Of a stretch of DNA of 64,000 nucleotides, positions 11,517-64,000 are shown piece by piece (position 1 is the stretch's first letter; each line of letters starts with the position of its first letter). The DNA is taken from positions 2,557,001 to 2,621,000 of the forward strand of contig NZ_CP091716.1 of NCBI RefSeq assembly GCF_022009635.1, written 5' to 3'. Source of the stretch: Variovorax paradoxus. Its GTDB lineage: Bacteria; Pseudomonadota; Gammaproteobacteria; Burkholderiales; Burkholderiaceae_C. The notes under the pieces are model-generated. The model ran no database searches and was not told where the DNA came from. It saw nothing but the letters and a program-made list of their open reading frames with translations. The position numbers and the translations under genes were made by a program.

Positions 11517-11535
11517 CTGTGTGTCTGCCCGCCGC

Positions 11536-12660: not shown

Positions 12661-12689
12661 CGGTGCGAGCAACTGAGCGGAGCATGCGC

Positions 12690-13820: not shown

Positions 13821-13826
13821 GTTGCT

Positions 13827-14402
13827 TTACTTCTTGGCTGGTGCCTTGGCCGGAGCCTTGGCGGCGGGAGCCTCGGTCGGAGCGCCGAGGGCCTTGGCGA
13901 CGTTTTCGTCGAGTGCGCGCATCTTGGGTTCGATGGTGGCGCGCGTGTCGGCCACCAGCTTTTCCGTGAGAGCGGTCTGCATCTTCGGGTTCAGGTCCTG
14001 GTACTTCTTGCTCAGGGGCGAGTTGATCCAGGCCAGCAGTTGCTTGAGCTCGTCTTCGCTGAAGTTCTGCTCGAGCAGGGGGGTCAGGGCGCCAGGAGCC
14101 AGTTGCACGGCCTTGTCGCGCACGATCGGGTAGGCGTCGTCGAAGTACTTCTTCAGCTCTGCGTCGGCGGCCTTGGCGGCTGCTTCACGCTTGGCTTCCG
14201 GCACCTGCGTCTGCAGGTACTGCGAACCCGCCTGTGCGATCGGAGCGCTCGATTGCTCGACCAGGCCGCGCGCCAGCGATTCGATGCCGGGGCGCTGGAT
14301 GTCGATGAACTGCTTGATGAGCGTGGCCTTGTCCTGGGCCATGACGGCCATCGAACTGCTAGCCAGGGCGACCGTCAGAAGTGCGAGTTTGATTTTTTTC
14401 AC
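13827..14402 (-). CDS. exported DUF2059 protein
   Basis: A 191-residue protein with a signal peptide (about residues 1-22, ending in SMAVMAQD). The following mainly helical domain, ending in [22 protein letters not shown], matches the DUF2059 family of unknown function. The C-terminal 20 residues are an Ala/Lys/Pro tail with repeated APAK. It starts with GTG, and the start overlaps the gyrA stop (GTGA). Its place between gyrA and serC is recurrent in Comamonadaceae; no function can be assigned. It is probably periplasmic. Confidence 0.8.
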
Positions 14403-19448: not shown

Positions 19449-19833
19449 GGGGCTGCACTGGTTTCGACGTGGGTTCGGAGTCGCAGCGGGGCATGTCGAG
19501 CTGAATGCGCTCGTAAAACAGATTCAAACAAACTAACTGCAAACGACGAACGTTTCGCACTCGCTGCTTAATTGCCAGTGAGCCTTGCAACAGTTGGCCG
19601 ATGGGCTGGGCAAGGGGGTCTGGAGCAATCCTGACCTCCCGGCTGCAAGGATAATTACATGGGCTGGCTTCGATCCGGGTACCTTGGGTCGAGGCGAGAA
19701 AATAGGGTGCTGGCGTCCGGTTTAGCGTGTGACTGCGCGGTTCCGGAAGCGAGACTTAAATCAGATCACTAAACATGTAGAACTGCGCGATGAAGGCTTG
19801 CGGACGGGGGTTCAAATCCCCCCAGCTCCACCA
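19449..19833 (+). ncRNA. ssrA: transfer-messenger RNA (tmRNA)
   Basis: A 385-base tmRNA. The 5' end GGGGCTG pairs with CAGCTCC before the 3' CCA, forming the alanine tRNA-like acceptor stem, and GGTTCAAATCCC-type sequence gives the T arm (GGGGGTTCAAATCCCCC). The tag reading frame at 19539-19571 encodes ANDERFALAA followed by TAA, typical of betaproteobacteria. It rescues stalled ribosomes with SmpB and marks the peptide for proteolysis. The CCA is encoded. Confidence 0.97.
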
Positions 19834-46243: not shown

Positions 46244-46975
46244 TCAGGCCCGAAACCGATAGCCCGTGCCTCTGACAGTGTGCAGCGGCAGTGAAATGCC
46301 CGCCGCGAGCGCCTTGCGCCGAAGCCGGCTGATCACCACGTCCACGCGCTGGAGGTCGAAATGCTCGAGGTCGCCGCCAAGCGCGACCGCGAGCTCCACA
46401 CGGTCGACAGGCTTGTCCCGCCGCTTGAACAGGCACCCCACGATGGCTCGCTCGGACATGGTCAGGCGCAGCATCCGGTCGCCCGGATCGCAGAGGATCC
46501 AGTCGTCCTCCTTGAGCTCCCAGCGTCCCGTGCCCCTGGGCGCTTCAGACTGCGGCTGTGCAGGATGGGCACCGCGCTCGGAGGCCTTGATGCGCCGATG
46601 GATGGCCTGCAGCGACGCGGCAAGCTCTTCGGCGTGTACCGGCTTCACGAAGTAGGCATCCGCGCCGTCACGCAGGCCGCGCACCCGATCGCTGAGTTCG
46701 TGGCGTGCGGTTGCGAACACGATTCCCACGTTGCTGGCCGAGCGCAGGTGCTGGGCAATTGAAAAACCGTTCTCGTCCGGCAGCCCGATGTCGATGACCA
46801 CGATGTCGCAGCGGCGGACCGCATAGGCCCGGTAAAACGCCGACGCCGTCGAAAACCCGTGGGCTTCGACGCCCATCTGGTTGAGGTTGTATACGAGCGC
46901 TTCCTGAAGGTCTTCTTCGTCTTCGATCAGGTAGACGACTATTTTTTCACTGCTGTCGGTTTTCGTAATGTTCAT
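46244..46975 (-). CDS. OmpR-family response regulator
   Basis: A 243-residue regulator. The receiver (about 11-122) has the acidic pair in IEDEEDLQEA, the phospho-acceptor Asp62 in VVIDIGLPDENG, Thr89 and Lys111, so it looks active. The winged helix (about 150-243) ends in LHTVRGTGYRFRA, and the recognition part is RVDVVISRLRRKALAAG. It is encoded divergently from the sensor kinase gene, with 59 bp between them, which suggests a cognate pair and a shared promoter region. Its likely targets are the adhesin genes downstream. Confidence 0.9.
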   Translation of the reverse strand: MNITKTDSSEKIVVYLIEDEEDLQEALVYNLNQMGVEAHGFSTASAFYRAYAVRRCDIVVIDIGLPDENGFSIAQHLRSASNVGIVFATARHELSDRVRGLRDGADAYFVKPVHAEELAASLQAIHRRIKASERGAHPAQPQSEAPRGTGRWELKEDDWILCDPGDRMLRLTMSERAIVGCLFKRRDKPVDRVELAVALGGDLEHFDLQRVDVVISRLRRKALAAGISLPLHTVRGTGYRFRA

Positions 46976-47034
46976 GGTGCATATTCCTGCGGCCTCGGCG
47001 CAAGCCTGGACGACGAGCCGGAAGAATCATTGGA

Positions 47035-48966
47035 ATGAAAAAGAATCGCTGCCTGTATTTGATATTTGGACTGATCCTCTGGCTTTCATGCCAGGCCGCG
47101 GGAGCGATGGTTCTCAAGAAGGGGCAGGGGGATGACGGTCCGATTTCGTTGGCAAAGGAGGTGGAGGTGTTCCGGGATCCTTCCGGAAAGGTCACCATGA
47201 ACGATATCGTCTCCAATCCGGATAAATACAGCTTCGTGCGTGAAGATATTCGTTCGTTCGAGAGATATTCCGACGATACCTTGTGGATCCGGGTTTCGCT
47301 GCAGCAGGAAATCGGCACGCCGATCGACTGGGTCATGCAGATATTTCCAGGCTGGATCGACGAAGTCGAAATGTACTGCGTCTATCCGGATGGAAAAATA
47401 TCGACCAACAAGATGGGCGATCAGCATTCGTTTTCCGAGAGGGATATTCAATCCAGCATCATGGCATTTCCATTGATCGTGGATTCGGCATCGAGAATCC
47501 ATTATTTTAGGGTGAAAACACACGGATTGACGATTCTCGATCTAAATCTTTGGCAAAAATCGAGATTCGAAAAAGTGGAGCTGAAGAGAAGCCTTTTCTT
47601 TTCCGCGTTTACAGGGGCAATCGCCGTCATGGTGCTTATGAACCTGATTTTCTGGAAATGGACCAAGGATGGGGATTTTTTCATATATTCCCTGTTTCTG
47701 GTGATCATGCTGGGCGCCGTATTCGCGGTGCAGGGATATTCCAGTTCCTTGTTCTTTCCGGATAACCCGGTGTATGCGGATCGCTTCGTGGACGCGACCA
47801 CCTGTGCACTCATGTCAATTGCCGCGATATTCGTGTGCCGATTTTTCAATTACAGGGACTATTCGGCATGGGCCGCCAGATTCATGTATCTGGCAGCGGC
47901 AGTTTTTTTCCTGGCAGTTATTCTTTCCATGCTCGGTGTGATCGAAAATTCGATCAAATGGCTGCTTTATCTGGAAATTTTTGTAGGCATCTTCAATACC
48001 GTATTTGTTGGCTGGGTGATTTTCCGCAGGAAGGCCTTTTATCAGCTGCTTGCTGCTTTCATTTTTTTCGTGGTGAATTCCTCATGGCTTTTCTATTCCA
48101 TGGTCCTGCTGGGCGTCGTGAGGCTGGAGCAGTCTTTTGTTACGGAGTCGCTGATACAGTTCACTCAATTGGCAAATTTGACAATACTCAATATTGCCGT
48201 GGTCAGCCGTTCCAGGCAGTCTGAATTGAGAGTGAGGGCCGAGAGAAAACGGGCATTCAATTCGATGAAAGTCGCGAAGATCGCATTGGAAGAGCGGGTC
48301 CGTCAGCGTGAATTTGTCGCAATACTTTCACACGAATTTCGCACCCCCCTCGCCATCATCGATGCCGTGGCGCAAGCACTCGGGTTATCGCCCTCGGGAC
48401 ATGACGAGCGTGTGAAACGCAGTGTCGAAAAAATCCGCAAAGCGACCCGCCGGCTGACCACCCTGGTCGAGAACATCCTGCTGGATGATGCGCTGGAGGC
48501 AGGTGCGCGTTCAACCTCCCGCAGCTTCGACCTGTGGTGCGCGATTGAAAACGTTCGCAACGTCGGGCTGCCCGACGAACATGCACGCTTGAATGTCAGC
48601 GCACCGCAGCGCCCGGTCATTTTCGAAGGCGATCAGGAGAAGATCGAAATGGCAATTCGAAATCTGCTTCTGAACGCCATCAAATATTCACCAACCGATT
48701 CGATGGTGGATGTTCAGTGTGAAGTCAGCTCGAATTTTTTCAATGTGACGGTTTCGAATAAAGGAAACCCAATTCCGGAATCCGAAAGAGGCGAGTTGTT
48801 CGAGCGTTATTTCAGAGGAGGCAACTCTTCGCTGGTGCCAGGTTCCGGACTCGGCCTTCACATTTCGCGAACGATCATGCGTCGGCACGGAGGCGACGTC
48901 GTACTGGTTTCCAGCAATGGAACCGGTACGGTGTTTCGCCTCACACTCCCGCTGCTGTCACAGTAG
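47035..48966 (+). CDS. 7TMR-DISM sensor histidine kinase
   Basis: A 643-residue kinase. The signal peptide (1-23) is followed by an extracytoplasmic 7TMR-DISMED2-like domain (about 30-180), seven helices (about 195-400), a HisKA domain with SHEFRTPL (His433) and a HATPase domain with NLLLNAIKYSP and GSGLGLHISRTIMRRHGG. The G1 box is weak: SNKGNPIPES replaces the usual DxGxG. The first 1,250 bases are clearly poorer in GC than the surroundings, while the kinase core is GC-rich. Such sensors often detect carbohydrates or small metabolites. It is divergent from an OmpR-type regulator. Confidence 0.88.
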   Translation: MKKNRCLYLIFGLILWLSCQAAGAMVLKKGQGDDGPISLAKEVEVFRDPSGKVTMNDIVSNPDKYSFVREDIRSFERYSDDTLWIRVSLQQEIGTPIDWVMQIFPGWIDEVEMYCVYPDGKISTNKMGDQHSFSERDIQSSIMAFPLIVDSASRIHYFRVKTHGLTILDLNLWQKSRFEKVELKRSLFFSAFTGAIAVMVLMNLIFWKWTKDGDFFIYSLFLVIMLGAVFAVQGYSSSLFFPDNPVYADRFVDATTCALMSIAAIFVCRFFNYRDYSAWAARFMYLAAAVFFLAVILSMLGVIENSIKWLLYLEIFVGIFNTVFVGWVIFRRKAFYQLLAAFIFFVVNSSWLFYSMVLLGVVRLEQSFVTESLIQFTQLANLTILNIAVVSRSRQSELRVRAERKRAFNSMKVAKIALEERVRQREFVAILSHEFRTPLAIIDAVAQALGLSPSGHDERVKRSVEKIRKATRRLTTLVENILLDDALEAGARSTSRSFDLWCAIENVRNVGLPDEHARLNVSAPQRPVIFEGDQEKIEMAIRNLLLNAIKYSPTDSMVDVQCEVSSNFFNVTVSNKGNPIPESERGELFERYFRGGNSSLVPGSGLGLHISRTIMRRHGGDVVLVSSNGTGTVFRLTLPLLSQ

Positions 48967-48975
48967 TGCGCACGT

Positions 48976-49225
48976 TAATGGTGCATTCCTTCGCGTGGCG
49001 TGCTTGCGTAAAACTATAGTGTGAAATACTTCACGAAAAATGTGAGATTTCGCGCTGCCATTCTCTGACATTAATCCCGGATCATTACTGTCAAGTGAAA
49101 TTTGCTCGGGAGGGGCCTGCACAATAATGGTGCACTCCTTGCGCCGAGATTGTTATTCTCTCTCCGGCCTTCTTGTAAATAAGAATTGTGCCGAGATGAC
49201 CCGGACATTTCTTAATGACATTAAT
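48976..49225. repeat. two spaced copies of a TAATGGTGCA ... TGACATTAAT motif pair
   Basis: TAATGGTGCA occurs at 48976-48985 and 49125-49134, each followed by YTCCTT; TGACATTAAT occurs at 49066-49075 and 49216-49225. The two motifs are 90 and 91 bases apart in the two copies, although the sequence between them is not similar. This suggests two binding units of the same regulator. Confidence 0.45.
49020..49035. promoter_or_regulatory. CRP/FNR-like palindrome
   Basis: TGTGA (49020-49024), six bases, then TCACG (49031-49035): 9 of 10 bases of the CRP consensus TGTGA-N6-TCACA. A possible site for a CRP/Vfr-type regulator; no such gene is in the window. Confidence 0.4.
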
Positions 49226-49244
49226 TGCAATGGCATGTCATTAA
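49212..49244. repeat. perfect 10-bp inverted repeat
   Basis: TTAATGACAT (49212-49221) and ATGTCATTAA (49235-49244), spacer 13 bases. The arms contain the TGACATTAAT motif that is also found 150 bp upstream. A candidate dimer operator 100 bp before the next gene. Confidence 0.5.
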
Positions 49245-49307
49245 TCGCTGCCGTCGCAAACAGATACATTCCGCTGCCCGAACGGTCATAGTGGAGTGCA
49301 GCGACAG

Positions 49308-49341
49308 CCTCTCTTGACGTTCATCTTTGAACTTTGAGAGG
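49308..49341 (+). promoter_or_regulatory. leader hairpin covering the ribosome binding site
   Basis: CCTCTC (49308-49313) can pair with GAGAGG (49336-49341), which is the ribosome binding site 5 bp before the ATG at 49347. An inner stem GTTCA/TGAAC (49319-49323 and 49328-49332) with loop TCTT stabilises it. Translation could be blocked until the hairpin opens. Confidence 0.5.
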
Positions 49342-49346
49342 TTGGA

Positions 49347-50339
49347 ATGATTTCCCCAGAGTCGTGTAGCCGCTCCTTGCGCCTGGAAGCACGGAGCGAC
49401 GTCCGTGACATCGTGCAGGCGCCAAGAGTGAAAGAGGGAGGCGGACGCCTCGTCGAGACCGGGGCACACCCTGCTTTGTTTCCCCCGTCCAGCGCAATCC
49501 ATTCCGGTCATGCGCAACTGCCAGATACCGCAGAGATGCCCTCTTCTGGTGCGGTTGGTGGAGCGAGCACCGCTCCGAGGGGCGTGCCTGGCGCAGCGGG
49601 CCTGTTCTCGGGCGAGCTGCAATTGCCTCTCGTCGCCCTCGACGATTCGAGCGTCAGTTGCCCTGCCTTGCGAAAGAGCGTCGATCGGCTGGGTTGTGCG
49701 TCTGTCGCATTTGAAACGCTCAGCGATCTCATGAATGCACTCCAGGCGGGTGACCGCTTCGGGCTGTTGCTTCTTAATCTCCCCGCGGACGTGAATATCA
49801 ATTGGGTGAAAGCCATTCGCGGCTTGACCAGTGCACCGGTATTGTTTGCGGTCAATGAAAGCAAGGCTGCCTGGCAATTGAGGGCTGGTGGGAAGCTTCA
49901 CGGCGAAAGCAATTTCGACTTTGTTTTTCCTCCTTTTGACAGTGCCGAAATAAGACTGAGAGTGCGAAATCTGATGAGTCGAAGCGCCTCGATCAGATGC
50001 GCAGCTACCGGCAATGGAGTTCTGGCTTTCAAGAGCTACCGATTTCAGCTCGACGAGCGAAAGGTCTTTTACGAAGACCGGGAAGTGAGCTTGCAGCGGC
50101 GCGAATACGATCTGGCGTTGAATTTTTTCAAAAACATAGATTTCCCTTTGGCCAGGGGAAATCTGAATTTTCTTCTCCGGCGCGAATTTTCGGATTCACG
50201 TTCTCGCGTGCTGGACGTGTATGTCGCAAAAATCAGAAAAAAACTGCGAATCGAACCATCGAATGGCCTGATTCTGAAGGCGGTGTTTGGATACGGATAC
50301 GAATTGCGTACCGCCTTTTCGAAAGAAATTATTGGCTGA
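49347..50339 (+). CDS. regulator with degenerate receiver and OmpR-type winged helix
   Basis: A 330-residue protein. The first 90 residues are of low complexity with no recognised domain. Residues 92-210 resemble a receiver: the acidic pair is kept (VALDDSS, 99-100), but the expected phospho-Asp is Asn144 in LLLLNLPAD, and the usual Lys of the KPF block is Pro195 (FVFPPFD). The C-terminus (225-325) is an OmpR-type DNA-binding domain (SLQRREYDLALNFFKN, RVLDVYVAKIRKKLRI, GYGYEL). It is probably a phosphorylation-independent regulator of the adhesin gene, which starts 55 bp downstream. The low GC content sets it apart from the rest of the window. Confidence 0.8.
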   Translation: MISPESCSRSLRLEARSDVRDIVQAPRVKEGGGRLVETGAHPALFPPSSAIHSGHAQLPDTAEMPSSGAVGGASTAPRGVPGAAGLFSGELQLPLVALDDSSVSCPALRKSVDRLGCASVAFETLSDLMNALQAGDRFGLLLLNLPADVNINWVKAIRGLTSAPVLFAVNESKAAWQLRAGGKLHGESNFDFVFPPFDSAEIRLRVRNLMSRSASIRCAATGNGVLAFKSYRFQLDERKVFYEDREVSLQRREYDLALNFFKNIDFPLARGNLNFLLRREFSDSRSRVLDVYVAKIRKKLRIEPSNGLILKAVFGYGYELRTAFSKEIIG

Positions 50340-50394
50340 AGGAAATTTCCATCTGCGCGCGGTTGGGCATTGATTGATCTTGGTATTTGGGGGA

Positions 50395-53300
50395 ATGATT
50401 TTGTTGCACGTTGTAGTCAAGCGCAGTGGAGAGGGCACTCGAGTCTCTGCAAATGAGGTATCGCTGAAAGAAGCCTCGATCGTTCGGGTCGACTTGCCGA
50501 AACAACAGGTCAAGGGCATGCGCCGTGTCGGCACCGACCTGGTCATCACTGCCGTTTCCGGCGAGATCGTCACTGTCCGCGGCTTCTTCTCGCCATTCGA
50601 TGGGAACAAGAGCGATCTGGTGCTGGATGAGGGGCAAGGCGGTTCGTGGTTCGCCGGGCTCAGCCAGGAGCATGGCGAATTGGCCGTCAGCTACTCGGAA
50701 ATCGATTCCATCGAACCTCTGATGATGCCCAAGGCATCCGATTTCGGTGTGTGGCCCTGGCTGCTTGGCGGCGGCCTGCTTGCTGGTGCGGGCGGTGGTG
50801 GCGGCGGGGGAGGGGGCGGGGGCGGAGGATCGCCGCTGCCATTTCTTGCACCACCACAGGCCTCGCCGACGCCTATCGACCGGACGCAGCCGGCCAAGCC
50901 CTCCATCAATCCGACCAACGGTGGATTGATCTCCGGTATGGCGGAGCCCGGTACCTTGGTCACCGTTATCAGCGGCACCGGCACACCGATCGGCAGCGCG
51001 ACCGCTGCACCCAGCGGCACCTACGCCATCCGCCCGACCACGCCAGTGCCAGACAGTACGGTGCTTCGTGTCGTTTCGACGAATCCAGCCGGCGGCACCA
51101 GTTCCGAGGCCGTGACCACCGTGGACAACAAGGCGCCCCTGGCGCCGAGCGTCGACCCGACCAATGGCAGCCCGATCGCCGGCACGGCGGAAGCCGGTGC
51201 ACTTATCACGATCAGGGACGGCGCGGGCAATGTCATCGGCAGTGCCACCGCCGCAACCAACGGCACTTACAGCGTCACGCCGGTGAGCATTCCTGCGGAT
51301 GGCACGGTGCTCCGTGTTGTCGCCACCGATGCGGCGGGCAATGTCAGCCAGGCCGCGACGACCACGGTCGACAGCAAGCCGCCTGTCGCGCCGATCGTCA
51401 ATCCGACCAGTGGCAGTGCGATCTCGGGTATGGCGGAGGCCGGCGCGCTGGTCACGATCAAGGACAGCAATGGCAACATCATCGGCAGCACCACTGCTGC
51501 GAGCAATGGCTCCTATGGTGTCGTCCTGGCGACCGTTCCCGCCGACGGCCGCGAGTTGCGTGTCGTTGCCATCGACCGTGCCGGCAACGCCAGCCCCGAA
51601 ACCAGAATCACGGTCGACAGCAAGCCGCCTCTTGCGCCGACGGTCGATCCGACCAACGGCAGTTCGATCACCGGCACGGCGGAAGCCGATGCGGTCGTCA
51701 CGATCAAGGATGGCGCGGGCAACGTCATCGGCAGTGCCACCGCCGGGAGCAATGGCGCGTACCGCATCACTCCCGCTACCAAGCTCGTGGACGGCGCCGA
51801 TCTGCGCATCGCCGCCACCGACCGCGCCGGCAATGCCAGCCCGGAGGGCAGGGTAACGGTCGACAGCAAACCGCCCATCGCACCAACGGTCGAGCCGACC
51901 AACGGCAGTTCGATCACGGGCACGGCGGAAGGCGGTGCCCTGGTCCTGGTGAAAGACAGTTCAGGCAGCGTCATCGGCAGCGCCACCGCCTTGGCGGACG
52001 GCAAGTACAGCGTCCTTCCGGCAACCCCGCCGGAAGACGGCTCCGATCTGCGCGTTTCTGCCACCGACCGTGCCGGCAACACCGGCCCGGAGGCCAAGAT
52101 AAGGGTCGACAGCAAGGCGCCGACTGCACCAACGGTCCATCTGACCAACGGCAGTTCGATCACGGGGGCGGCCGAAGCCGGCACCACGGTCATGGTCAAG
52201 GACGGTTCGAACAACATCATCGGCAGCACGACCGCCACGGCCGATGGCTTGTACAGCATGAGCCCTGCCACCGTTCCGGCGGACGGCACCGAACTGCGTG
52301 TCACGGCCATCGACCGTGCCGGCAACGTCAGTCCTGAAACCAGGGGCAGGGTGGATGGGCACTTGCTCGATACGCCCACCGTCAAACCGACCAACGGCAG
52401 TTCGATCACCGGCACGGCCGGAGCGGGGGCCCTGGTCACGATCAAGGACAACGCAGGAGCCGTCATCGGCAGCGCGACCGTCGCGCCCGACGGCACGTAC
52501 AGCGTCACGCCGGTGATCAGCCCGGCGCATGACACCGAACTGAGCGTCGTCGCCTCCGACCCCGCGGGCAAGACCAGCCCCGAAGCCCGAGTCAAGGTCG
52601 ACAGCAAACCGCCTGTCGCACCCACGATCGTCCCGACCAACGGCAGTTCGATCACAGGCATCGCAGAGGGCGGCACCCTGGTCGCCATCAAGGATGGGCT
52701 GGGCAAGCTCATCGGCAGTACGACCGCCGCGGCGGACGGTTCCTACACCGTCACCCCGTCGACCGTTATGGCCGACGGAACGGTGCTGCATGCGGTCGCG
52801 ACCGACCAGGCCGGCAACGTCGGCCTCGAGGCCACGGCAACAGTCGACAGCAAGCCACCCGCGGCGCCGACGATCAACCCGACCAACGGTCGCTCGATCG
52901 CGGGCACTGCGGAAGCCGACGCACTGGTCGTGATCAAAGACGGCTCGGGCAAGGTGGTCGGCAGCACGACGGTCGCATCCGACGGCACATACGGCATGAC
53001 TCCTGCGACTGCTCTGGCAGACGGCATGGTGCTGCATGCCGTTGCGACCGATCGGGCTGGCAACGCCGGCTCTGAAGCGACTGCAATCGTAGACAGCCAA
53101 AAGCCCTTCGCGCCCACCGTCAACCCGACCAACGGAAATTCGTTCACGGGTACCGCCGAGGTCGGCTCGCTCATCACGATCAAGGATGGTGCGGGCACGA
53201 TCATCGGCAGCGCGACCACTGCAGCCGATGGCTGGTACAACGTCACCCCGGTGACTCCGCCCGCGGATGGCGTCGAGTTGAGCGTCGTCGCCACCGATCG

Positions 53301-56300: not shown

Positions 56301-59300
56301 GCCTCCTGCGCCGATGCTCGATCCGAGCAACGGCCGCTCGATCACGGGCACGGCCGAAGCCGGTGCGCTTGTCACGATCAACGATGGCGCAGGCAACGTG
56401 ATTGGCAGTGCGACCGCCGCGGGCGATGGCAAGTACAGCATCACCCCCGCGGCCACGCTGGCGGACGGCACTGTGCTGCACGCCGTCGCGACCGATCGCT
56501 CCGGCAACATCGGCTCCGAAGCGACTGCAACCGTAGACGGCAAGGAGCCCCTCGCACCCACGGTCAACCCGACCAACGGCAGTCCGATCACGGGCACAGC
56601 GGAACTGGATTCCATCGTCACGATCAAGGATGGTTCAGGCGCGGTCATCGGCAGCGCGAGCGTCGCGGCCGATGGCTCGTACCGTGTCATGCCGACGACC
56701 CCGCCCGCGGACGGCGCCGAGCTGAGCATCGTCGCGACCGACCGTGCCGGCAATGCCAGTGTTGAAGTCAAAGCCATCGTCGACGGCAAGGCGCCCGTTG
56801 CACCGACGGTCAACCCGACGAACGGCAGCGCGATCACGGGCTCCGCCGAAGACGGCGCTCTGGTCACGATCAAGGACGACGCAGGCAATGTGATCGGCAG
56901 CGCCACCGCCGCAGCCGACGGCAAGTACAGCATCACTCCGGCCACAGCTCCGGCAGACGGCACGGTGCTGCACGCAGTCGCCACCGACCGTGTCGGCAAT
57001 GCCAGTTCGGCCGCAACGGTCACCGTCGACCGCAAGCCGCCCGTCATCGGCATCGCCATCGTCAACGACGCCAACAACGACGGCTTCATCAACGCGAGCG
57101 AGAAGGGCGCCAAGGTGACCGTGAAGGTCACGCTCGTATCCGGTGCCGCCGAGGGCGATGTCATCAGCCTCAGCAATGGCGCCGGCACCTCCAGCATCAC
57201 GCTGACCGCGACGGATGTCGCCAACGGCTTCGTCGATGCCTCGTTCGACAACCCTGCCGAAGGCGAAACCTTCAGCGTCAGCGCAACCAGCCGCGACCTC
57301 CCCGGCAATGTCTCGGCACCGGCCGCGACCGACAGCGCGGTGCTCGACACCACGCTGGCCGCACCAGGCATCGGCGTTGCAAGCATCACGTCGGACAACG
57401 TCGTCAACATGGTCGAAGCCGCAGCGACTGTGGTCGTCTCCGGCACCACCACCGGCACGCAGTCGGGCGATGTCGTCACGCTCCTGGTCAACGGCGTCAC
57501 CTACAGCGGCACCGTCGACGCAAGCGGCAACTGGCGCATCGACGTGGCGGGCAGCGACCTGGCGGCCGACGCCGACCGCACCGTCGCGGCCAACGTCGTC
57601 AACCACGACACGGCCGGGAACGCCTCTAGCGCCACCAGCAATCATGGATACGGCGTGAGCAGCACGGCACCGCTCGTCACCATCGACAAGCCGGTGGCGG
57701 GCGATGACCTGGTCAATGCCAGGGAAGACGACGCAGTGGTCGTCAAGGGGGCAACCGCGAATGTCGAGAACGGGCAGACCGTCACCGTCACCTTCAGCGA
57801 CGGTACGAACAGCGTGACTGCAACGGCGACTGTTTCCGGCAACAGCTGGACCGCCGACCCGGCCGACATCAGCGGCCTGGCCAACGGCACCATCACCATC
57901 ACGGCCGTCGTGCAAGACCTCGCACGGAATCCGGCGACCAGTACCCATGCGGTCACGCTCGACAACGTCGTGCCGGTGCAGACGGCGGAGATAACGAGCT
58001 ACACCGACGACGTCGGCGGCAGCCAGGGCAGTTTCGGCGGCGGCACCCGGACGGATGACCCCAACCCGGTGCTCAATGGCAAGCTGAGCGCCGCCATCGG
58101 AACCAACGAAGCGGTGCGCGTCTACGAAGGCGCGAAGCTGCTGGGAACGGCGACGGTCAATGGCACCGACTGGACTTACGACCTGGGCTTTCTCGCGGAT
58201 GGCTCGAGCCATACCTATCGGGCTGTGGTGGCCGGCGCGGGCGGTACCGAAGGCCCCATGTCGACCGACTTCATCCTGACTGCCGACTACGCCCTCACGG
58301 TCAACAGCCAGAACACCGTCGACACCACGCCGCTCGTGACCGGCACGATGCCTTTCAAGCTGACCGATGGCCAGTACATCGAAGTCACCATCGACGGCAA
58401 GACCTACAGCTCGGCCAACGGCGTGGTGCACATCGATGCGCGGCACGCGATCTGGTACGTGCAGGTGCCGGCGGCAATGGCGAGTGGCACCTACGACGTC
58501 AAGGCCGTGGTCAAGAGCGCTTCCGGCGCGCAGGTCACGACCGACGACACGACGGGCGAGTTGATCGTTTCCCCTGAACCGAAAGTGACTGTCGGAGCCA
58601 CGGCCACCAGCCCGCACGAGAAGGGCACCGCCTACACGGTCGGCGAGAACGGCATGTGGCGCATCCACAGCAACCAGAAGATGATGGATGCCGATGGCAC
58701 CAACAACGCCACGCTTGGCAGCTTCAGGCTGACCGCGTTGAAGAGCAACTCCAACGAAAACGGTTCCTCTAGTGACGAATACAACCCGACATATATGGGG
58801 CATAACTATGTCCAGAACGCCACGTTCATGGATTTCAACCGTGACGGGCACATGGACCTGTTCACGGAAGACAGCACTCCCAGGGACGGCCAGCAGGCAT
58901 TCATCTTCAATGGCAGCAGCTATACCGCACTGCAGGTTGGCGGGCAGGACTACAACTACAAAGACAAAACTACTGCCCCTGAAGTCGCCAATTCGAACGT
59001 AGACAGCTCGTTCAGCGGCGTGGTGGCCTTCGACAAGACAGGCACCGGCTTCGTCAGCGTGGCCTATGGCAACCAGGCGCGTGAAAACAGCAGTGTCGTC
59101 ACAGGAAACAGCGACTCGCAGATCGTGCTGAACAGGGACGGCAACATCCGCCACATGGTCAAGGACGCCAGTTACACGAATGCCGTGAAACCGGATTCCA
59201 GAACCGAGCAATCGAACGTCGGCAACGCCCCTTTCGACACGGAACTGTCGGGCGTCGACTTGAACAACGACGGCACGATCGATCTCGTTTATCACGCGAC

Positions 59301-61080
59301 GGCGTACACCACGAAGATCGGCGGCCCTTCCGCAGATCCAACTTCGGCATCCACGAAAAAATCCAAAGAGCCGCACCGTCTCGTCGTTGCAAGCAACAAG
59401 GGCGACGGAACCTGGGAGAACACGCAGATCATCGAGAGCGTGTTCCAGAACATCGCCAACAAGTATGCTTTTTATGGCAATGGCATTTCCATGACATGGG
59501 CCGACTTCAATGGTGACGGCTACATGGATCTGTTCATGGGGCGCGGCTACGGGAACACGCCCGATGCGGAACATCGGAGCCGGATCCTCTTCAACGACGG
59601 CCACGGCAAGCTGGAGATGAGCGACCCGGACGACGACAAGATCGGCGGCATGCCATCGAGCATGTATACGTTTGGCAAGACCGATGGTTCTCGCGCGCTT
59701 CAGGGCGGCCCTTCGCTCGCAGTCGACTGGAACGGCGACGGCAAGATGGATGCCATCGAACTACCGGGCTTTGGCGACCTCGACGGAGTCACGCAGGAGG
59801 GCAACACGGGCCCGATCAATCTCTATACGAACAAGAGTTCGGGAAAGACGATCAATTTCGAAAGAGCTAATCTGCTCGGCGGGTCGAACACGATCGGCCT
59901 CTGGACTCGTTCTCCGGAGACCAACGATGCCGTGACCGGTGCCATCGCCGCCGACACCGACTGGGACGGCGACCGCGACCTGCTGGCGTTCACCCAGAAA
60001 GGCAACACCCGCTTCATCACCAATACCACCACGGTGGCAGACGGCACGTCGCTGCACTTCCGCATCCTCGATGCGGAAGGCATCAACGCGCTGTATGGCA
60101 ACACCGTGCAACTGTTCGACTCGTCGGGCAAGCTGGTGTCCACCCAGATCATCAATCCGCAGTCCGGCAACCAGACCAACGACAGTTCCGCGATCGTCGA
60201 CTTCTACGGGCTCGATCCGAGAGAGACTTACACGCTGGCAATCCTGCGCATTGCCAACGGACAGGCAGCCGATGTGGGTGGTCTGGCCAAGCTCGGCGGC
60301 AACGCCATCGAACAGGTCAATGCCGCATGGACCGGCCTGAAGGCCGGCGAGGCGAACCACGCCTTTGTGCTGACCACCGAATCCGGGACCAACGTCGCCA
60401 ATGCCAACATCGCCAACGGCATCGTCGGCACCGGCTACAACGACACCTTCTTCGCCACCCAAGGCAATGACAAGTACGAAGGTGGCGGCGGCACAGTGAT
60501 GGTGTCCGGCGTCAAGGCCTGGAGCAATACCGGCGGCCTGGACATCGTCGACTACAAGCTCGCAGGCGACACGCCGCTCACTATCGACTTGAGCAAAACC
60601 GGTGCGCAGAACACCGGTTTCGGCACGGCGACCTTCAGGAACATCGAGGGCCTGGCAGGTGGCCACAGCGCCGACATCTTTGTCGACAACGCGGCGGACA
60701 ACCAGTTCGAAGGGCGTGGCGGCAACGACAACTTGATCCTCACAGGCGGGGGAAGGGACACGCTGCTCTACAAGCTGCTGGCAGCCAGTGACGCCACCGG
60801 CGGCAACGGTTCGGACGACGTCTACGCGTTCGAGGTCGGCGCATTCGCGGCCTGGCCCAACGCGGACCGTATCGACGTGCGCGAACTGCTGGTCGGCTTC
60901 ACGCCGGCCAACGAAGCCAGCTACCTGAAGGTCTCGGTGGTCAACGGGCGCGACACGGTGATCTCCGTCGATCGCGATGGTGCTGACGGCGGCTTCGACT
61001 TCGCCCCGTTGCTGACCTTGCGCGGCGTGCAGACGGACCTGGCCACATTGCTCGCCAACCAGCAACTGGTGATGGTCTGA
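50395..61080 (+). CDS. giant BapA-like adhesin secreted by type I machinery
   Basis: A 3,561-residue surface protein without a signal peptide. Residues 1-110 form a BapA/LapF-type prefix domain, followed by a hydrophobic WPWLLGGGLL and a run of glycines. Twenty-five Ig-like repeats of 82 residues (about 164-2213) start with PTNGSxITGTAEAGALVTIK and end with ATDRAGNAS. Several other Ig-like units (to about 2720), five calcium-loop motifs like DFNRDGHMD (FG-GAP/VCBS-like, about 2812-3195) and RTX-like GNDKYEGGGG and GRGGNDNL near the end follow. The last 100 residues resemble a type I secretion signal. The start at 50395 (ATG) is preferred over a TTG seven codons earlier. Role: cell adhesion and biofilm. 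Confidence 0.88.
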   Translation: MILLHVVVKRSGEGTRVSANEVSLKEASIVRVDLPKQQVKGMRRVGTDLVITAVSGEIVTVRGFFSPFDGNKSDLVLDEGQGGSWFAGLSQEHGELAVSYSEIDSIEPLMMPKASDFGVWPWLLGGGLLAGAGGGGGGGGGGGGGSPLPFLAPPQASPTPIDRTQPAKPSINPTNGGLISGMAEPGTLVTVISGTGTPIGSATAAPSGTYAIRPTTPVPDSTVLRVVSTNPAGGTSSEAVTTVDNKAPLAPSVDPTNGSPIAGTAEAGALITIRDGAGNVIGSATAATNGTYSVTPVSIPADGTVLRVVATDAAGNVSQAATTTVDSKPPVAPIVNPTSGSAISGMAEAGALVTIKDSNGNIIGSTTAASNGSYGVVLATVPADGRELRVVAIDRAGNASPETRITVDSKPPLAPTVDPTNGSSITGTAEADAVVTIKDGAGNVIGSATAGSNGAYRITPATKLVDGADLRIAATDRAGNASPEGRVTVDSKPPIAPTVEPTNGSSITGTAEGGALVLVKDSSGSVIGSATALADGKYSVLPATPPEDGSDLRVSATDRAGNTGPEAKIRVDSKAPTAPTVHLTNGSSITGAAEAGTTVMVKDGSNNIIGSTTATADGLYSMSPATVPADGTELRVTAIDRAGNVSPETRGRVDGHLLDTPTVKPTNGSSITGTAGAGALVTIKDNAGAVIGSATVAPDGTYSVTPVISPAHDTELSVVASDPAGKTSPEARVKVDSKPPVAPTIVPTNGSSITGIAEGGTLVAIKDGLGKLIGSTTAAADGSYTVTPSTVMADGTVLHAVATDQAGNVGLEATATVDSKPPAAPTINPTNGRSIAGTAEADALVVIKDGSGKVVGSTTVASDGTYGMTPATALADGMVLHAVATDRAGNAGSEATAIVDSQKPFAPTVNPTNGNSFTGTAEVGSLITIKDGAGTIIGSATTAADGWYNVTPVTPPADGVELSVVATDRAGNASPEIRTTVDSKAPVAPTANPTNGSLITGTAEVGTRVTIKDGTGAVIGSETVADDGKYSITPATRPADGTELRVVATDRAGNASLEARVTVDSKSPNEPTVHPTNGKLITGTAEAGALVTIKDGPGNVIGSATAANDGAYSIAPAATLADGFELRVVATDRAGNASLEIKAIVDGNAPFAPSVDPTDGSLITGTAEANVLVTIKDGTGAVIGSATAGTDGAYGITPTTKPADGAQLRVVASDPAGNASLETRVTVDGMAPAAPTADPTNGSLITGTAEVGTRVTIKDGTGAVIGSATVADDGKYSITPATRPADGTELRVVATDRAGNASLEVRVKVDSKSPNEPTVNPTNGKLITGTAEAGTQVVIKDAAGNIVGSATVKPDGSYSVVPATTPADGTELRVVVTDPAGNVSLEARTIVDGKVLDMPKVDPTNGRAITGTTEAGALVTIKDSTGAVIGSATAAADGTYSIKPVTTPADGTQLSVVATDAAGNASPEARITVDGTPPSAPTVNPTNGHSITGTAEFGALVTIRDGANAVIGSATAAADGSYSVTPAIRPANGAELRIVATDRAGNASLEARVTVDSDPPSAPKVNPTNGNSIAGTAEAHSVVTIKNGAGEVVGSATAAADGSYSITLVTAPTNGTELYVVATDRVGNPSTETRITVDGTPPSAPTVNPTNGSSITGTAEFGALVTVKDGAGAVIGSATAATDGTYSITPTTPPANGTELLVVATDSAGNASTEAKFKVDDKSPVAPTVNPTNGSAITGFAEDGALVTIKDGAGATIGSATAALDGTYSITPATAPADGAELRVVATDRAGNASPEVKVTVDSKPPAAPVVNPTNGSVINGTAEVGALVTIKDGSGATIGSAITAADGTYRVVPATAPADGAQLRVIATDHAGNTSLEAAATVDSNPPPTPTVNLTRGHSITGTAEAGTLVTIKDGLGNAVGSATVGVDGAYTITPAATLTDGTVLHVVAVDRAGNTSLEARTTVDGTPPPAPMLDPSNGRSITGTAEAGALVTINDGAGNVIGSATAAGDGKYSITPAATLADGTVLHAVATDRSGNIGSEATATVDGKEPLAPTVNPTNGSPITGTAELDSIVTIKDGSGAVIGSASVAADGSYRVMPTTPPADGAELSIVATDRAGNASVEVKAIVDGKAPVAPTVNPTNGSAITGSAEDGALVTIKDDAGNVIGSATAAADGKYSITPATAPADGTVLHAVATDRVGNASSAATVTVDRKPPVIGIAIVNDANNDGFINASEKGAKVTVKVTLVSGAAEGDVISLSNGAGTSSITLTATDVANGFVDASFDNPAEGETFSVSATSRDLPGNVSAPAATDSAVLDTTLAAPGIGVASITSDNVVNMVEAAATVVVSGTTTGTQSGDVVTLLVNGVTYSGTVDASGNWRIDVAGSDLAADADRTVAANVVNHDTAGNASSATSNHGYGVSSTAPLVTIDKPVAGDDLVNAREDDAVVVKGATANVENGQTVTVTFSDGTNSVTATATVSGNSWTADPADISGLANGTITITAVVQDLARNPATSTHAVTLDNVVPVQTAEITSYTDDVGGSQGSFGGGTRTDDPNPVLNGKLSAAIGTNEAVRVYEGAKLLGTATVNGTDWTYDLGFLADGSSHTYRAVVAGAGGTEGPMSTDFILTADYALTVNSQNTVDTTPLVTGTMPFKLTDGQYIEVTIDGKTYSSANGVVHIDARHAIWYVQVPAAMASGTYDVKAVVKSASGAQVTTDDTTGELIVSPEPKVTVGATATSPHEKGTAYTVGENGMWRIHSNQKMMDADGTNNATLGSFRLTALKSNSNENGSSSDEYNPTYMGHNYVQNATFMDFNRDGHMDLFTEDSTPRDGQQAFIFNGSSYTALQVGGQDYNYKDKTTAPEVANSNVDSSFSGVVAFDKTGTGFVSVAYGNQARENSSVVTGNSDSQIVLNRDGNIRHMVKDASYTNAVKPDSRTEQSNVGNAPFDTELSGVDLNNDGTIDLVYHATAYTTKIGGPSADPTSASTKKSKEPHRLVVASNKGDGTWENTQIIESVFQNIANKYAFYGNGISMTWADFNGDGYMDLFMGRGYGNTPDAEHRSRILFNDGHGKLEMSDPDDDKIGGMPSSMYTFGKTDGSRALQGGPSLAVDWNGDGKMDAIELPGFGDLDGVTQEGNTGPINLYTNKSSGKTINFERANLLGGSNTIGLWTRSPETNDAVTGAIAADTDWDGDRDLLAFTQKGNTRFITNTTTVADGTSLHFRILDAEGINALYGNTVQLFDSSGKLVSTQIINPQSGNQTNDSSAIVDFYGLDPRETYTLAILRIANGQAADVGGLAKLGGNAIEQVNAAWTGLKAGEANHAFVLTTESGTNVANANIANGIVGTGYNDTFFATQGNDKYEGGGGTVMVSGVKAWSNTGGLDIVDYKLAGDTPLTIDLSKTGAQNTGFGTATFRNIEGLAGGHSADIFVDNAADNQFEGRGGNDNLILTGGGRDTLLYKLLAASDATGGNGSDDVYAFEVGAFAAWPNADRIDVRELLVGFTPANEASYLKVSVVNGRDTVISVDRDGADGGFDFAPLLTLRGVQTDLATLLANQQLVMV
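50886..57035 (+). repeat. 25 tandem 246-bp Ig-like repeats
   Basis: The motif ccgacc within PTNG recurs at 51157, 51403, 51649 and 51895, an exact 246-bp period (82 codons), and goes on 25 times. Some units lack the consensus (for example LTNG, PTSG, PSNG), but no unit is interrupted by a frameshift. All frames remain open on the opposite strand, which produces long false antisense frames. Confidence 0.92.
53360..54398 (+). repeat. recent duplication of a three-repeat block
   Basis: About 300 bases from 53360 and from 54098 are nearly identical, 738 bp (three repeats) apart: both read PTNGSLITGTAEVGTRVTIK and continue through DSKSPNEPTV. Other repeats differ much more, so this reflects recent recombination or gene conversion. 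Confidence 0.75.
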
Positions 61081-61090
61081 CGCAACCCCT

Positions 61091-61137
61091 GGCGGGCAAG
61101 AACGACGTTGGCTTCGGCTGTGTCGATCTTGTCCGCC
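61091..61137 (+). other. hairpin between adhesin and tolC-like gene
   Basis: GGCGGGCAAG (61091-61100) and CTTGTCCGCC (61128-61137) pair over 10 positions with one G-U pair around a 27-base loop. No T-run follows. It may lower expression of the exporter genes relative to the adhesin. Confidence 0.35.
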
Positions 61138-61150
61138 GGGAAACAAAAAC

Positions 61151-62578
61151 ATGAACAAGAAACTCAATCATCGACGGCTGGCGGCCGCTTGCCTGCTCGC
61201 GGCCTGCGTTCCGGCGTTTGCGCAAAGCAGCTATGGCGACCTGAAGCTGTCACGGCGGCTCGCCCCGAGCGCACTGGCCAAGGAGCTGGGCATTCAGCCC
61301 GGTCTCGCACTGCCCGAGGCAGCCGAGACCACGACACCACTGGAACTGACCGACGCCGTGCGCCAGGCGGTGGCGCGTCATCCGTCCATCTCCGATGCCA
61401 TCGCCATGCTCGCGCAGCAGTCGGGCGGCGTGGATGTGGCGCGCGCCGGCTACTACCCGCTGGTGCGCGTGGGCATGGGCGCCGGCGTCAATGGCGGCGC
61501 CTCCGCCACCCAGGGGGGCGGAAAGCGCGGCGTCGCCACGGCATCCGTGTCGCAGATGCTGTACGACTTCGGCAAGGTCTCCGGTGCGGTCGGCCAGTCG
61601 GAAGCGCAGGTGCAGCGCCAGCAGGCCACGGTCCTCAAGCAGATCGATGCCATCGCCCAGCAGGCGGCCGAAGCCGTCGTCATGACGCACCGCTACCAGT
61701 CGCTCGTCGCCATCGCACAGGAGCAAGTGCAGGCGGTCGAGAAAGTGCTGGAGACCGCGAGGCTGCGCGCCGATGCCGGTCTCAGCACCAAGGCCGACCC
61801 GATCCAGGCCGAGTCGCGCGTGGACAGTGCGCGCGCCAACCTGCTGCAGGTGAAGTCGCAGCTGGCGCAGTGGCGCGAACGCCTGGGCACGCTGCTGGGT
61901 CGCTCCGTGCCCCCGCGCATGGCGCCGCTGCCGGAGCACCTGGCGAGCGAACTGCGCATCGACCTGCAGCCCGACACCAGCCTCATGCCCGAGGTGCTGG
62001 CCGCAGAGGCCGAGCGCCGCGCGGCCACCGCCCAGCTCGAAGTCGCCAAGGCCCAGCGCTACCCCACCATCAGCCTCGATGCTTCCGTCAACCGGCCCAT
62101 GGGCGGCATGAATTCCGGCGTTCCGGAGCGCAGCGGCGGCTCCCACTCGGTCATGCTGAATCTCTCCAGCGTGCTCTATCAGGGCGGTGCGCTCGAAGCC
62201 CAGGTCAATACCGCCATCGCCGCCGAGCAGGCCGCGCGCATGCGCATCGAAACCGCTCGCCTCAATGCCGGCGACCAGGTACGCAACTTCCGCGAGCAGG
62301 TCATCGGCGCGCAGGCGCGCCTGGGCGTGCTGGCCGACCGGCGCCGCAGCATCGTCGAGGCGCGCGACCTTTATCGCGAGCAGTACACGCTCGGCACCCG
62401 CTCCATCCTCGATCTGCTCAATGCCGAGCAGGAGATCCACCAGGCCGCGGCCGACGAAGAGGCCGTGCTGCACGACCTCTGGGCCAGCCGCATCGGCTAC
62501 ATCGGCGCCACCGGCCAGGCCCGCACGTATTACGGCCTGAACAACACCACCGTCCAAGGGATCGAGTTGCTTCCATGA
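61151..62578 (+). CDS. TolC-family outer membrane secretion protein
   Basis: A 475-residue outer-membrane channel protein. The signal peptide covers about residues 1-25 (ending FAQS). Two OEP repeats are visible: LTDAVRQAVARHPSISDAIA with the first long helices, and VAKAQRYPTISLDASVNRPM in the second half, ending in LDLLNAEQEIHQA. It forms the tunnel through the periplasm and outer membrane for the adhesin, with the ATPase encoded next. The stop overlaps the ATPase start (ATGA), so the two are translated together. Confidence 0.92.
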   Translation: MNKKLNHRRLAAACLLAACVPAFAQSSYGDLKLSRRLAPSALAKELGIQPGLALPEAAETTTPLELTDAVRQAVARHPSISDAIAMLAQQSGGVDVARAGYYPLVRVGMGAGVNGGASATQGGGKRGVATASVSQMLYDFGKVSGAVGQSEAQVQRQQATVLKQIDAIAQQAAEAVVMTHRYQSLVAIAQEQVQAVEKVLETARLRADAGLSTKADPIQAESRVDSARANLLQVKSQLAQWRERLGTLLGRSVPPRMAPLPEHLASELRIDLQPDTSLMPEVLAAEAERRAATAQLEVAKAQRYPTISLDASVNRPMGGMNSGVPERSGGSHSVMLNLSSVLYQGGALEAQVNTAIAAEQAARMRIETARLNAGDQVRNFREQVIGAQARLGVLADRRRSIVEARDLYREQYTLGTRSILDLLNAEQEIHQAAADEEAVLHDLWASRIGYIGATGQARTYYGLNNTTVQGIELLP

Positions 62579-64000
62579 AGTTGTCTTCGCAGTACACGAG
62601 CTGGCTCGACGCCATGCTCTTCGTCGCCCGCCACTACGGCATCGGCGCCTCCGAGGAGAGCGTGCGCGTCTCGCTGGCCTGGGAGCGTGGCGCGCCGCTG
62701 GACACGCTGCTCGACCATATGGCGCGGCAGCTCGGCCTGACGGTGCGGCTGGGCGAGTTCTCCGATGCGATGCTCGACCCGTGGCGCCTGCCGCTGGTGG
62801 TGGAGTTCGACAACGGCGAGGTCGGCGTCGTGCGCGCCTCCGACGGCCATGGCCAACTGGGCGTGCTGCTCGGCGGCGACCACGGGCTCGAGACGGCGCT
62901 GCCGCTCGCCGAACTGCGCCTCCATGCGAAGCGCGTGGCCGTGCTGAGGCCCAACACGGCCGTGCCCGATGCGCGCGTGGACGACTACATCAAGCCCTAC
63001 AAGGCCAACTGGTTCTGGGCCATCGCGCTGCGCGACTGGCGGCGCTACGGCGACATCGTGCTGGCCTCCATGTTCGCAAACGTGCTGGCGCTCGCGTCGA
63101 TGATCTTCTCGATGCAGATCTACGACCGCGTGGTGCCGGCGCAGTCCGAGCCCACGCTGTGGGTGCTGTTCGGCGGCGTGATGCTGGCGGTGGTCTTCGA
63201 GTTCATGCTGCGCGTGTCTCGCACGCATATCTCCGACGTGATCGGCAAGCGCGCCGACCTCAAGGTGTCGGATGTCGTGTTCGGCCATGCGCTGCGCCTG
63301 CGCACCGACGCGCGCTCTAAATCCACGGGCTCCTTCATCGCCCAGGTGCGCGAGGTGGAGCAGGTGCGGGAGCTGCTCACTTCCACCACCATTTCCGCGG
63401 TAGCCGACTTGCCGTTCTTCCTGTTGTTCCTGGTCGTGCTCTGGCTGGTGGCCGGACCGCTCGCATTGGTGGCGCTGGCGGCGGTGCCATTGCTGGTCAT
63501 TCCGGGCCTGCTCATCCAGAAGCCGCTGGCGCGGCTGGCGAGCGAAGGCATGCGCGAATCGGCATTGCGCAATGCCTTGCTGGTCGAAGCCGTCGAAGGC
63601 ATCGAGGACATCAAGCTCATGCGCGCAGAACCGCGTTTCCAGAACCAGTGGAACCACGTCAACGACGTATCCGCCGGCGTGAGCATGCGGCAGCGCTTTC
63701 TCACGAGCCTGCTCATGACATGGACGCAGGAGGTGCAGACCATCGTGTATGCCGTGGTGCTGCTCGCGGGCTGCTTCCTCGTGATGCGGGGCGACATGAC
63801 GACGGGTGCGCTGGTGGGCTCTTCGATCCTGGCCTCGCGCATGATCTCGCCGCTGGCGCAGTTGTCGGGCGTGTTCGCGCGTTGGCAGCAGGCCAAGGTG
63901 GCGCGCGCGGGGCTCGACCAGCTCATGCAGCGCCCGGTCGACCAGGCCGACGGCGCGCGGCTGGTGCATGCCCCCGCGCTGCATGGAAACTACGCGCTGG
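62575..64000 (+). CDS. type I secretion ATPase/permease (partial)
   Basis: N-terminal 475 residues of an RTX-type ABC exporter. The first 140 residues are a C39-peptidase-like domain with no catalytic cysteine at the expected place (WLDAMLFVARHYGIGAS), which in adhesin exporters serves to hold the substrate. The six-helix transmembrane region (about 150-430) includes SMFANVLALASMIFSMQIYDRVVP and DLPFFLLFLVVLWLVAG. The ATP-binding domain is beyond the right edge. It follows the tolC-like gene with a four-base overlap and should export the giant adhesin. Confidence 0.9.
   Translation, partial: MKLSSQYTSWLDAMLFVARHYGIGASEESVRVSLAWERGAPLDTLLDHMARQLGLTVRLGEFSDAMLDPWRLPLVVEFDNGEVGVVRASDGHGQLGVLLGGDHGLETALPLAELRLHAKRVAVLRPNTAVPDARVDDYIKPYKANWFWAIALRDWRRYGDIVLASMFANVLALASMIFSMQIYDRVVPAQSEPTLWVLFGGVMLAVVFEFMLRVSRTHISDVIGKRADLKVSDVVFGHALRLRTDARSKSTGSFIAQVREVEQVRELLTSTTISAVADLPFFLLFLVVLWLVAGPLALVALAAVPLLVIPGLLIQKPLARLASEGMRESALRNALLVEAVEGIEDIKLMRAEPRFQNQWNHVNDVSAGVSMRQRFLTSLLMTWTQEVQTIVYAVVLLAGCFLVMRGDMTTGALVGSSILASRMISPLAQLSGVFARWQQAKVARAGLDQLMQRPVDQADGARLVHAPALHGNYAL

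What the first reader, a model, noticed from the sequence alone, without database searches (positions are those of the whole stretch)
46244..64000. Self-contained adhesin locus with its own secretion genes and three layered regulators
In one stretch lie a divergent OmpR/7TMR-DISM pair, a degenerate-receiver regulator, a 3,561-residue BapA-like adhesin and the first two genes of a type I exporter. Adhesin plus exporter is known (BapA, LapA, LapF families). The direct coupling to a regulator that seems unable to be phosphorylated, preceded by a heavily structured leader, is not something I recognise as described. It may be a local on/off switch for attachment.
Basis: partly seen in the sequence, partly recalled or inferred. 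Interest (0 to 1): 0.75.

Follow-up and report, generated by a model that had tools for sequence, protein, structure and literature searches.

The report
Adhesin control cassette with shared leader
A soil bacterium carries a giant sticky surface protein next to its own sensor, switch protein and an odd second switch protein, and the same unusual piece of control DNA also sits in front of another stickiness gene in related strains, which suggests a small dedicated attachment-control circuit.

Summary
A divergent OmpR-type regulator (RR) and 7TMR-DISM kinase (HK), a winged-helix regulator with a defunct receiver (DEG), a 3,561-aa BapA-prefix adhesin and a type I exporter lie in order. The coupling is conserved: 9 of 101 genus genomes have a DEG homolog at E<=1e-30. 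All nine have RR-HK-DEG, followed directly by a surface adhesin: BapA type in 8, trimeric-autotransporter-like in 1. The acceptor Asp is N, A, P or T in the homologs aligned. The structured leader is real: 13 copies covary (score 0/500 shuffles). Unexpectedly, this leader (10-bp boxes, 18 nt, TACATT, two hairpins) recurs once more in 7 of these genomes, before a trimeric autotransporter adhesin (TAA; 6) or, weakly, a second BapA adhesin (own genome). Five TAA copies end in an eight-codon ORF, MIS(L/P)E(S/P)C(S/G), matching the start of DEG. So this looks like a small adhesin regulon, not one local switch. Binding, transcription start and RNA function are untested. The closest known case is PprAB control of bapABCD. 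Eight paper searches found no description.

The parts
46244..46975 (-). OmpR-type response regulator, intact receiver (D62, K111)
   Evidence: Pfam; residue positions
47035..48966 (+). 7TMR-DISM sensor histidine kinase
   Evidence: Pfam
49217..49246 (+). three adjacent 10-bp stretches (GACATTAATT GCAATGGCAT GTCATTAATC), putative boxes for an OmpR-family protein; the middle one is degenerate here
   Evidence: register; GTCATT enrichment
49265..49270 (+). TACATT, -10-like, 18 nt after box 3 in all 14 DEG/TAA copies aligned
   Evidence: function inferred
49267..49298 (+). hairpin 1 / inverted repeat with a CC-loop-GG tip
   Evidence: covariation; column shuffles 0/500
49307..49342 (+). hairpin 2, hides the Shine-Dalgarno-like GAGAGG
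49347..50339 (+). DEG: winged-helix regulator with degenerate receiver (N144 at the acceptor, P195 at the Lys position)
49347..49370 (+). codons of the N-terminal peptide MISPESCS, shared with the eight-codon ORF of the TAA leaders
50395..61080 (+). BapA-prefix, Ig-repeat giant adhesin, 3,561 aa
61151..62578 (+). TolC-family outer membrane protein of a type I exporter
62575..64000 (+). ABC transporter of the exporter (continues beyond the window; HlyD follows)
   Evidence: exact start inferred from the 4-base overlap seen in L052

Best explanation
This is a dedicated adhesin-control cassette. The 7TMR-DISM kinase senses an envelope or extracellular signal and phosphorylates the divergent OmpR-type RR (inferred). 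RR-P binds the 10-bp boxes just upstream of a -10-like TACATT and switches on the DEG-adhesin(-exporter) transcript (inferred from architecture). The same promoter-leader in front of a trimeric autotransporter or second BapA gene makes a small adhesin regulon (copies shown as sequence; co-regulation inferred). Translation of the first ORF of each transcript, DEG or the eight-codon leader ORF, is held down by a hairpin over its Shine-Dalgarno (structure predicted and partly covarying, effect inferred). DEG, which cannot be a conventional phospho-receiver, is made together with the adhesin and probably works at the same boxes as a phosphorylation-independent partner or competitor of RR, setting threshold or duration (inferred, least certain).
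For: Gene order RR-HK-DEG-BapA adhesin in 8 of 9 genomes with a DEG homolog at E<=1e-30; in the ninth (G208) a TAA-like gene follows DEG (the G197 RR, missed by my gene caller, is 77% identical over 247 residues). At one site behind a 464-aa regulator gene the adhesin occurs with the module (G197, G228, G151; G247 shares the genes before it) and without it (G184, G227). In 14 of 14 DEG/TAA copies, aligned without gaps on TACATT, box 1 reads GNCATT and box 3 NNCATT in the same register, with an 18-nt spacer. A strict three-box pattern has 9 matches in 6 of 9 module genomes, all at DEG or TAA leaders, 0 reversed-control matches. GTCATT in nine HK-DEG gaps: 19 seen vs 1.9 expected (maximum 4 in 200 shuffles). 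Leader covariation score 0.194 vs 0.126, 0/500 shuffles. Second leader copies stand before YadA-type adhesins. The N-terminal half of that TAA was matched only in module genomes (G151, G247, G169, G228 besides the query's G235) among 101. No leader hit at module-free adhesins L103-L105.
Against: No binding or expression data. Which of RR and DEG binds the boxes is unknown. If TACATT is the -10, the left arm of hairpin 1 would be largely untranscribed, so hairpin 1 may not act as RNA. Hairpin 2 is weak in some copies (z -0.6 in L057 and L058, -1.0 in L055). The middle box is degenerate in several copies, and the strict pattern fits only 9 of the 14 and none in the own genome. The own genome's second copy (adhesin 2) is weak (E 6e-4; not recovered by model R2), and its boxes are poor. 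In G169, G247, G228 and G151 terminator-like stems stand between DEG and adhesin (by eye; one scored, 1 vs 0.3 expected), against simple co-transcription there. The number of pairs changed on both sides does not exceed shuffles (285/500). Copies are few and related.
Confidence: 0.55

Rival explanations
1. DEG is a negative autoregulator. It binds the inverted repeat around TACATT (the 'hairpin 1' DNA) or competes with RR at the boxes, so the conserved element is a DNA operator, not an RNA.
For: The inverted repeat overlaps the -10-like hexamer in the copies aligned, and in diverged G208 a different, long inverted repeat overlaps TAAATT at the corresponding place. DEG keeps an intact winged helix.
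Against: The span from arm to arm varies (27, 28 or 29 nt in seven copies measured); G-U pairs are tolerated; the tip pair covaries (CG/UA). In G228 and G169 the DEG copy has arms CCCC/GGGG and the TAA copy CCGC/GCGG; in G151 and G247 the TAA copy has CCGC/ACGG: odd for a site read by one protein.
Confidence: 0.25
2. Leader-peptide or RNA-binding-protein control. Translation of the short MISxE(S/P)C ORF, or binding of CsrA or another RNA-binding protein at the GGA-rich start region, decides whether transcription or translation reaches the adhesin.
For: Five of six TAA leaders contain the eight-codon ORF with the same start region as DEG; over 13 copies, codon position 3 shows 8 extra states against 4 and 2 at positions 1 and 2. 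A terminator-like stem follows the ORF in G228 and is visible in G151, and one stands before the adhesin in G228's DEG locus.
Against: The terminator scans barely exceed shuffles (1 vs 0.4; 2 short ones vs 0.2 in G197). The sixth TAA leader (G235) lacks hairpin 2 and the ORF. No conserved CsrA-type ANGGA in every copy (by eye).
Confidence: 0.25
3. Ordinary neighbourhood: an unrelated two-component system beside an adhesin, the leader copies being inert remnants of gene duplication.
For: Leader copies were found only in this genus: 1 of 399 genomes of a family sample, the own one (strict filters).
Against: Covarying structure, box register kept while spacers diverge, adhesin adjacency in 9 of 9, and module presence/absence at a fixed site.
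Confidence: 0.08

Closest known systems
PprAB two-component control of bapABCD in Pseudomonas aeruginosa (PMC3510237, passages read)
   Same: A two-component system directly activates a BapA adhesin plus its adjacent outer-membrane/ABC/fusion exporter genes, together with other adhesive structures.
   Different: pprA and pprB lie at the flp-rcp-tad locus, not beside bap; the passages read mention no second, receiver-dead regulator and no shared structured leader.
CsgD control of bapA in Salmonella (mentioned in a passage of PMC3510237; CsgD's unusual receiver is recalled, not checked)
   Same: A non-canonical receiver regulator drives a BapA adhesin along with other matrix genes.
   Different: CsgD is of the LuxR/FixJ type and not encoded at bapA (recalled); not paired with a 7TMR-DISM kinase (recalled).
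LapA/LapG/LapD adhesins of pseudomonads
   Same: Giant type I-secreted adhesin.
   Different: LapA is controlled by c-di-GMP and proteolysis (recalled); no LapG peptidase (PF06035) match in this genome; the N-terminus here is a BapA prefix.
Atypical OmpR-family regulators such as HP1043 and RitR
   Same: OmpR fold without the usual phosphorylation; entries 2hqr and 5u8k/5u8m are among the fold matches (whole-chain TM-scores low, as for all two-domain matches there).
   Different: Not known to me as adhesin-linked. Here five of eight syntenic homologs (G197, G169, G247, G228, G151), and apparently G235's frame-broken one, also lack the first strand and helix of the receiver.
7TMR-DISM hybrid kinases RetS/LadS (recalled)
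   Same: DISMED2 plus 7TM sensor linked to biofilm control.
   Different: Here a plain kinase beside its own OmpR-type regulator.

Membership tests
BapA-prefix type I-secreted adhesins | BapA_N prefix domain | tested here: met
   PF22783 E 3.9e-24; NF033677 47.0 bits vs cut-off 35
BapA-prefix type I-secreted adhesins | Adjacent TolC/ABC/HlyD exporter genes | tested here: met
BapA-prefix type I-secreted adhesins | Secreted, surface located, adhesive | not testable with these tools
   needs experiment
LapA/LapG-type adhesins | LapG periplasmic peptidase (Peptidase_C93) | tested here: not met
   0 matches in the own genome; 1 of 14 control genomes (Caulobacter) rings
Canonical OmpR/PhoB response regulators (DEG) | Winged-helix Trans_reg_C | tested here: met
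   fold matches
Canonical OmpR/PhoB response regulators (DEG) | Receiver with acceptor Asp and conserved Lys | tested here: not met
   N144/P195 in P0003; N, A, P or T at the acceptor in the homologs aligned; no Pfam receiver hit at E up to 1
Atypical (phosphorylation-independent) response regulators | Acts without phosphorylation | not testable with these tools
   inferred from residues only
PprAB-type control | Two-component system binds the adhesin promoter | not testable with these tools
   conserved boxes are suggestive
Any Rfam RNA family | Match of the leader at gathering score | tested here: not met
   only tmRNA in the window; 3 hits on 48900-49450 with E 2.2-7.7, far below gathering scores

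The most novel reading that the evidence does not exclude
A genus-specific adhesin regulon is built on a portable promoter-leader cassette: operator boxes, covarying hairpin, Shine-Dalgarno-hiding hairpin and a conserved mini-ORF. The regulator DEG arose, or is controlled, by having its own coding sequence fused to the mini-ORF of that cassette, so that the regulator and the non-adjacent adhesins (of type I and type V secretion) share one transcriptional and translational valve.
Probability: 0.3. Interest if true: 0.8.

Novelty: new variant of a known kind. Interest (0 to 1): 0.6.

Why it matters
Giant adhesins decide whether a bacterium attaches, and how adhesins of different secretion types are coordinated is, to my knowledge, poorly known. 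Here the candidate circuit, its targets and its cis-element can be read from sequence, so each step has a direct, cheap test. A shared leader whose mini-ORF is also the N-terminus of a regulator would be a new way to tie a regulator's synthesis to that of its targets.

Tried and rejected
DEG hits at 22-35% identity in the family (143 of 150 genomes at E<=1e-5) are taken as other OmpR-type regulators. Eleven of those loci (L060-L070) were opened and none had a BapA-prefix match; the rest were not opened. A genome-contig scan gave two irrelevant hits. A two-repeat pattern GTCATT-N5-GTCATT with one mismatch gave 11 hits in the own genome, none in this locus (not opened). The G221 leader hit (E 0.07) was judged chance. 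CsrA control was considered: no GGA context common to all copies (by eye). Rfam: nothing. LapG: no match. MAFFT alignments A2/A3 misplace hairpin 1, so pairs were counted on the model-based A7, which leans towards the model's structure; A5 (9 rows) gave a similar picture (covariation 1/500, pairs changed on both sides 49/500). The structure was drawn by hand from folds of these sequences.

Results against my reading: 'pairs with a change on both sides' 285/500 and 'further pair types' 467/500 do not exceed shuffles. BapA hits whose upstream was not opened: G157, G171, G208 (C169) and G246, 4 of the 29 genomes. The two weak second copies (G235 TAA, own adhesin 2) were left out of A7. G208 was left out of all leader alignments because its leader differs.

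Passages of PMC3510237 and PMC7730722 were read; other papers were seen only as search listings.
Full report
WHAT IS THERE. The window is 64 kb of a 7.9-Mb contig. The named DEG homologs are from Variovorax, so the genus is probably Variovorax. The RR keeps the receiver residues (D62, K111), whereas DEG has N144 at the acceptor and P195 at the Lys position (matched by alignment). DEG gets no Pfam receiver hit at E up to 1 and models as a receiver-like alpha/beta domain plus winged helix (10-residue mean pLDDT 55-94 over residues 91-320; residues 1-90 below 50). The adhesin is BapA-prefixed. TolC is followed by ABC, HlyD and a 426-aa gene; then, on the other strand, come a tryptophan-halogenase-like gene and a second BapA-prefix adhesin in an open frame of 7,144 aa. 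A third BapA-prefix adhesin (6,613-aa frame) lies at 1.25 Mb, with a second exporter copy (ABC 86%, HlyD 84% identical).

THE MODULE IS CONSERVED. Among 101 genus genomes, 9 have a DEG homolog at E<=1e-30. In 8 of them RR-HK-DEG stands directly before a BapA-prefix adhesin; the G197 RR was missed by my gene caller and confirmed separately (77% over 247 residues), and in G235 and G169 the RR is cut by the end of the stretch I fetched. In G235 DEG's first codons and its receiver are in different frames. In the ninth, G208, DEG (38% identical) is followed by MNKFYRVVWSK..., an extended-signal-peptide-like start (recalled), and YadA-stalk-like repeats in another frame of this draft contig. BapA prefixes occur in 29 of 101 genomes at E<=0.001 (28 over the cut-off). 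Twenty other upstream regions (17 further genomes, plus adhesins 2 and 3 of the own genome and adhesin 2 of G196) were opened; none showed DEG among its labels. Behind a 464-aa regulator gene (93-97% identical), G197, G228 and G151 carry module plus adhesin, and G247 shares the genes before it, while G184 and G227 have the adhesin about 310 nt behind that gene with no module. The module thus behaves as a plug-in.

DEAD RECEIVER. Aligned homologs have N, A, P or T at the acceptor. The short forms (236-241 aa; G197, G169, G247, G228, G151) begin after the first strand and helix, so the acidic pocket is gone. Two searches of 5.8 billion proteins gave 12 and 10 members at E<1e-50 and only ordinary or remote regulators below (one search scored only 7,997 candidates).

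LEADER AND OPERATOR. The 380-nt HK-DEG gap folds better than all 100 shuffles (z -3.7). Over nine loci the last 82+12 nt have mean z -3.1, from -4.5 to -1.2. In eight, hairpin 1 with a short closed tip and a second hairpin over the GGAGAG/GAGAGG ribosome site can be drawn, the second weak by energy in three. GTCATT occurs 19 times in the nine gaps against 1.9 expected. Aligned on TACATT without gaps, box 1 (GNCATT), box 3 (NNCATT) and an 18-nt variable spacer stand in one register in all 14 DEG and TAA copies; the middle box is looser; a distal TCATYAA-type box near -175 is seen in 11 of 14. A strict three-box pattern matches 9 places in 6 of 9 module genomes, all DEG or TAA leaders, with no reversed-control match. 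This is the geometry of an OmpR/PhoB-family activator overlapping the -35 (recalled for that family).

THE SECOND COPIES. A covariance model built from four leaders (R1) was run on 101 genomes. It found all eight BapA-linked DEG leaders and, in seven of those genomes, exactly one more copy; the only other hit was in G221 (E 0.07), judged chance. Six extra copies precede a trimeric autotransporter (YadA stalk, head and anchor in the G235 protein; the same C-terminus in G228, G197, G151 and G169; G247 by homology). The seventh, weak (E 6e-4), lies a few hundred bases before the own genome's second BapA adhesin; G196 has a similar stretch there that the model did not report. Five of the six TAA leaders run into an eight-codon ORF, MIS(L/P)E(S/P)C(S/G)-stop, closely similar to the start of DEG; G235's has lost that part. 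The N-terminal half of this TAA was found only in module genomes at E<=1e-60; its C-terminal half is common (37 of 101 genomes). Model R2 (13 copies) found nothing in the other 398 genomes of a family sample, nor did it report the own weak second copy there (strict filters).

STRUCTURE TEST. On the 13-copy alignment 85.0% of cells pair (shuffles 80.4%, 0/500), covariation is 0.194 vs 0.126 (0/500), cells changed on both sides 12 vs 4.9 (0/500), and slid registers reach at most 0.080. Pair 9-28 is GC, CG or GU, and pair 15-20 CG or UA. Against this, the numbers of pairs changed on both sides (285/500) and of further pair types (467/500) do not exceed shuffles. The sequences are related and the structure was drawn from them, so this is good but not final evidence.

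MECHANISM. Shown: gene order, residue losses, repeated promoter-leader, covariation. Inferred: RR-P activates through the boxes; hairpin 2 restrains translation; DEG modulates at the same boxes. Unresolved: TACATT as -10 and hairpin 1 as RNA cannot both be fully right unless transcription also starts further upstream.

KNOWN OR NEW. BapA plus exporter under a two-component system is known (PprAB, PMC3510237, passages read). A receiver-dead partner encoded between the kinase and the adhesin, with a leader shared by adhesins of two secretion types, was not found in the eight searches.

Noticed in passing
L010:7529-9031 and 9061-14949 (just beyond the window, - strand): A tryptophan-halogenase-like gene (PF04820 E 2.8e-112) and a second giant BapA-prefix adhesin converge on the exporter operon; the two adhesins share a nearly identical C-terminal stretch.
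   Followed up: partly
L010:5988-7268 and L011:16922-18190: A 426/422-aa protein without a Pfam hit over cut-off follows HlyD in both exporter copies of this genome (71% identical): a companion of unknown role.
   Followed up: no
L055-L058, DEG-adhesin gap: Terminator-like stems with T-runs stand between DEG and the adhesin in G169, G247, G228 and G151 (by eye; one scored); none was scored in that gap in the own genome.
   Followed up: partly
window 46250-61000: GC is about 46-55% over HK and 49-61% over DEG, against 62-69% over RR and mostly 56-70% over the adhesin, suggesting a different history for the HK-DEG stretch.
   Followed up: no
L054 about 2999-3830 (reverse orientation), G235: The DEG start peptide (a 53-codon ORF) and the DEG receiver/winged-helix part lie in different frames, so the first ORF resembles the free short ORF of the TAA leaders.
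   Followed up: no
window 19449-19833: tmRNA gene (RF00023).
   Followed up: no
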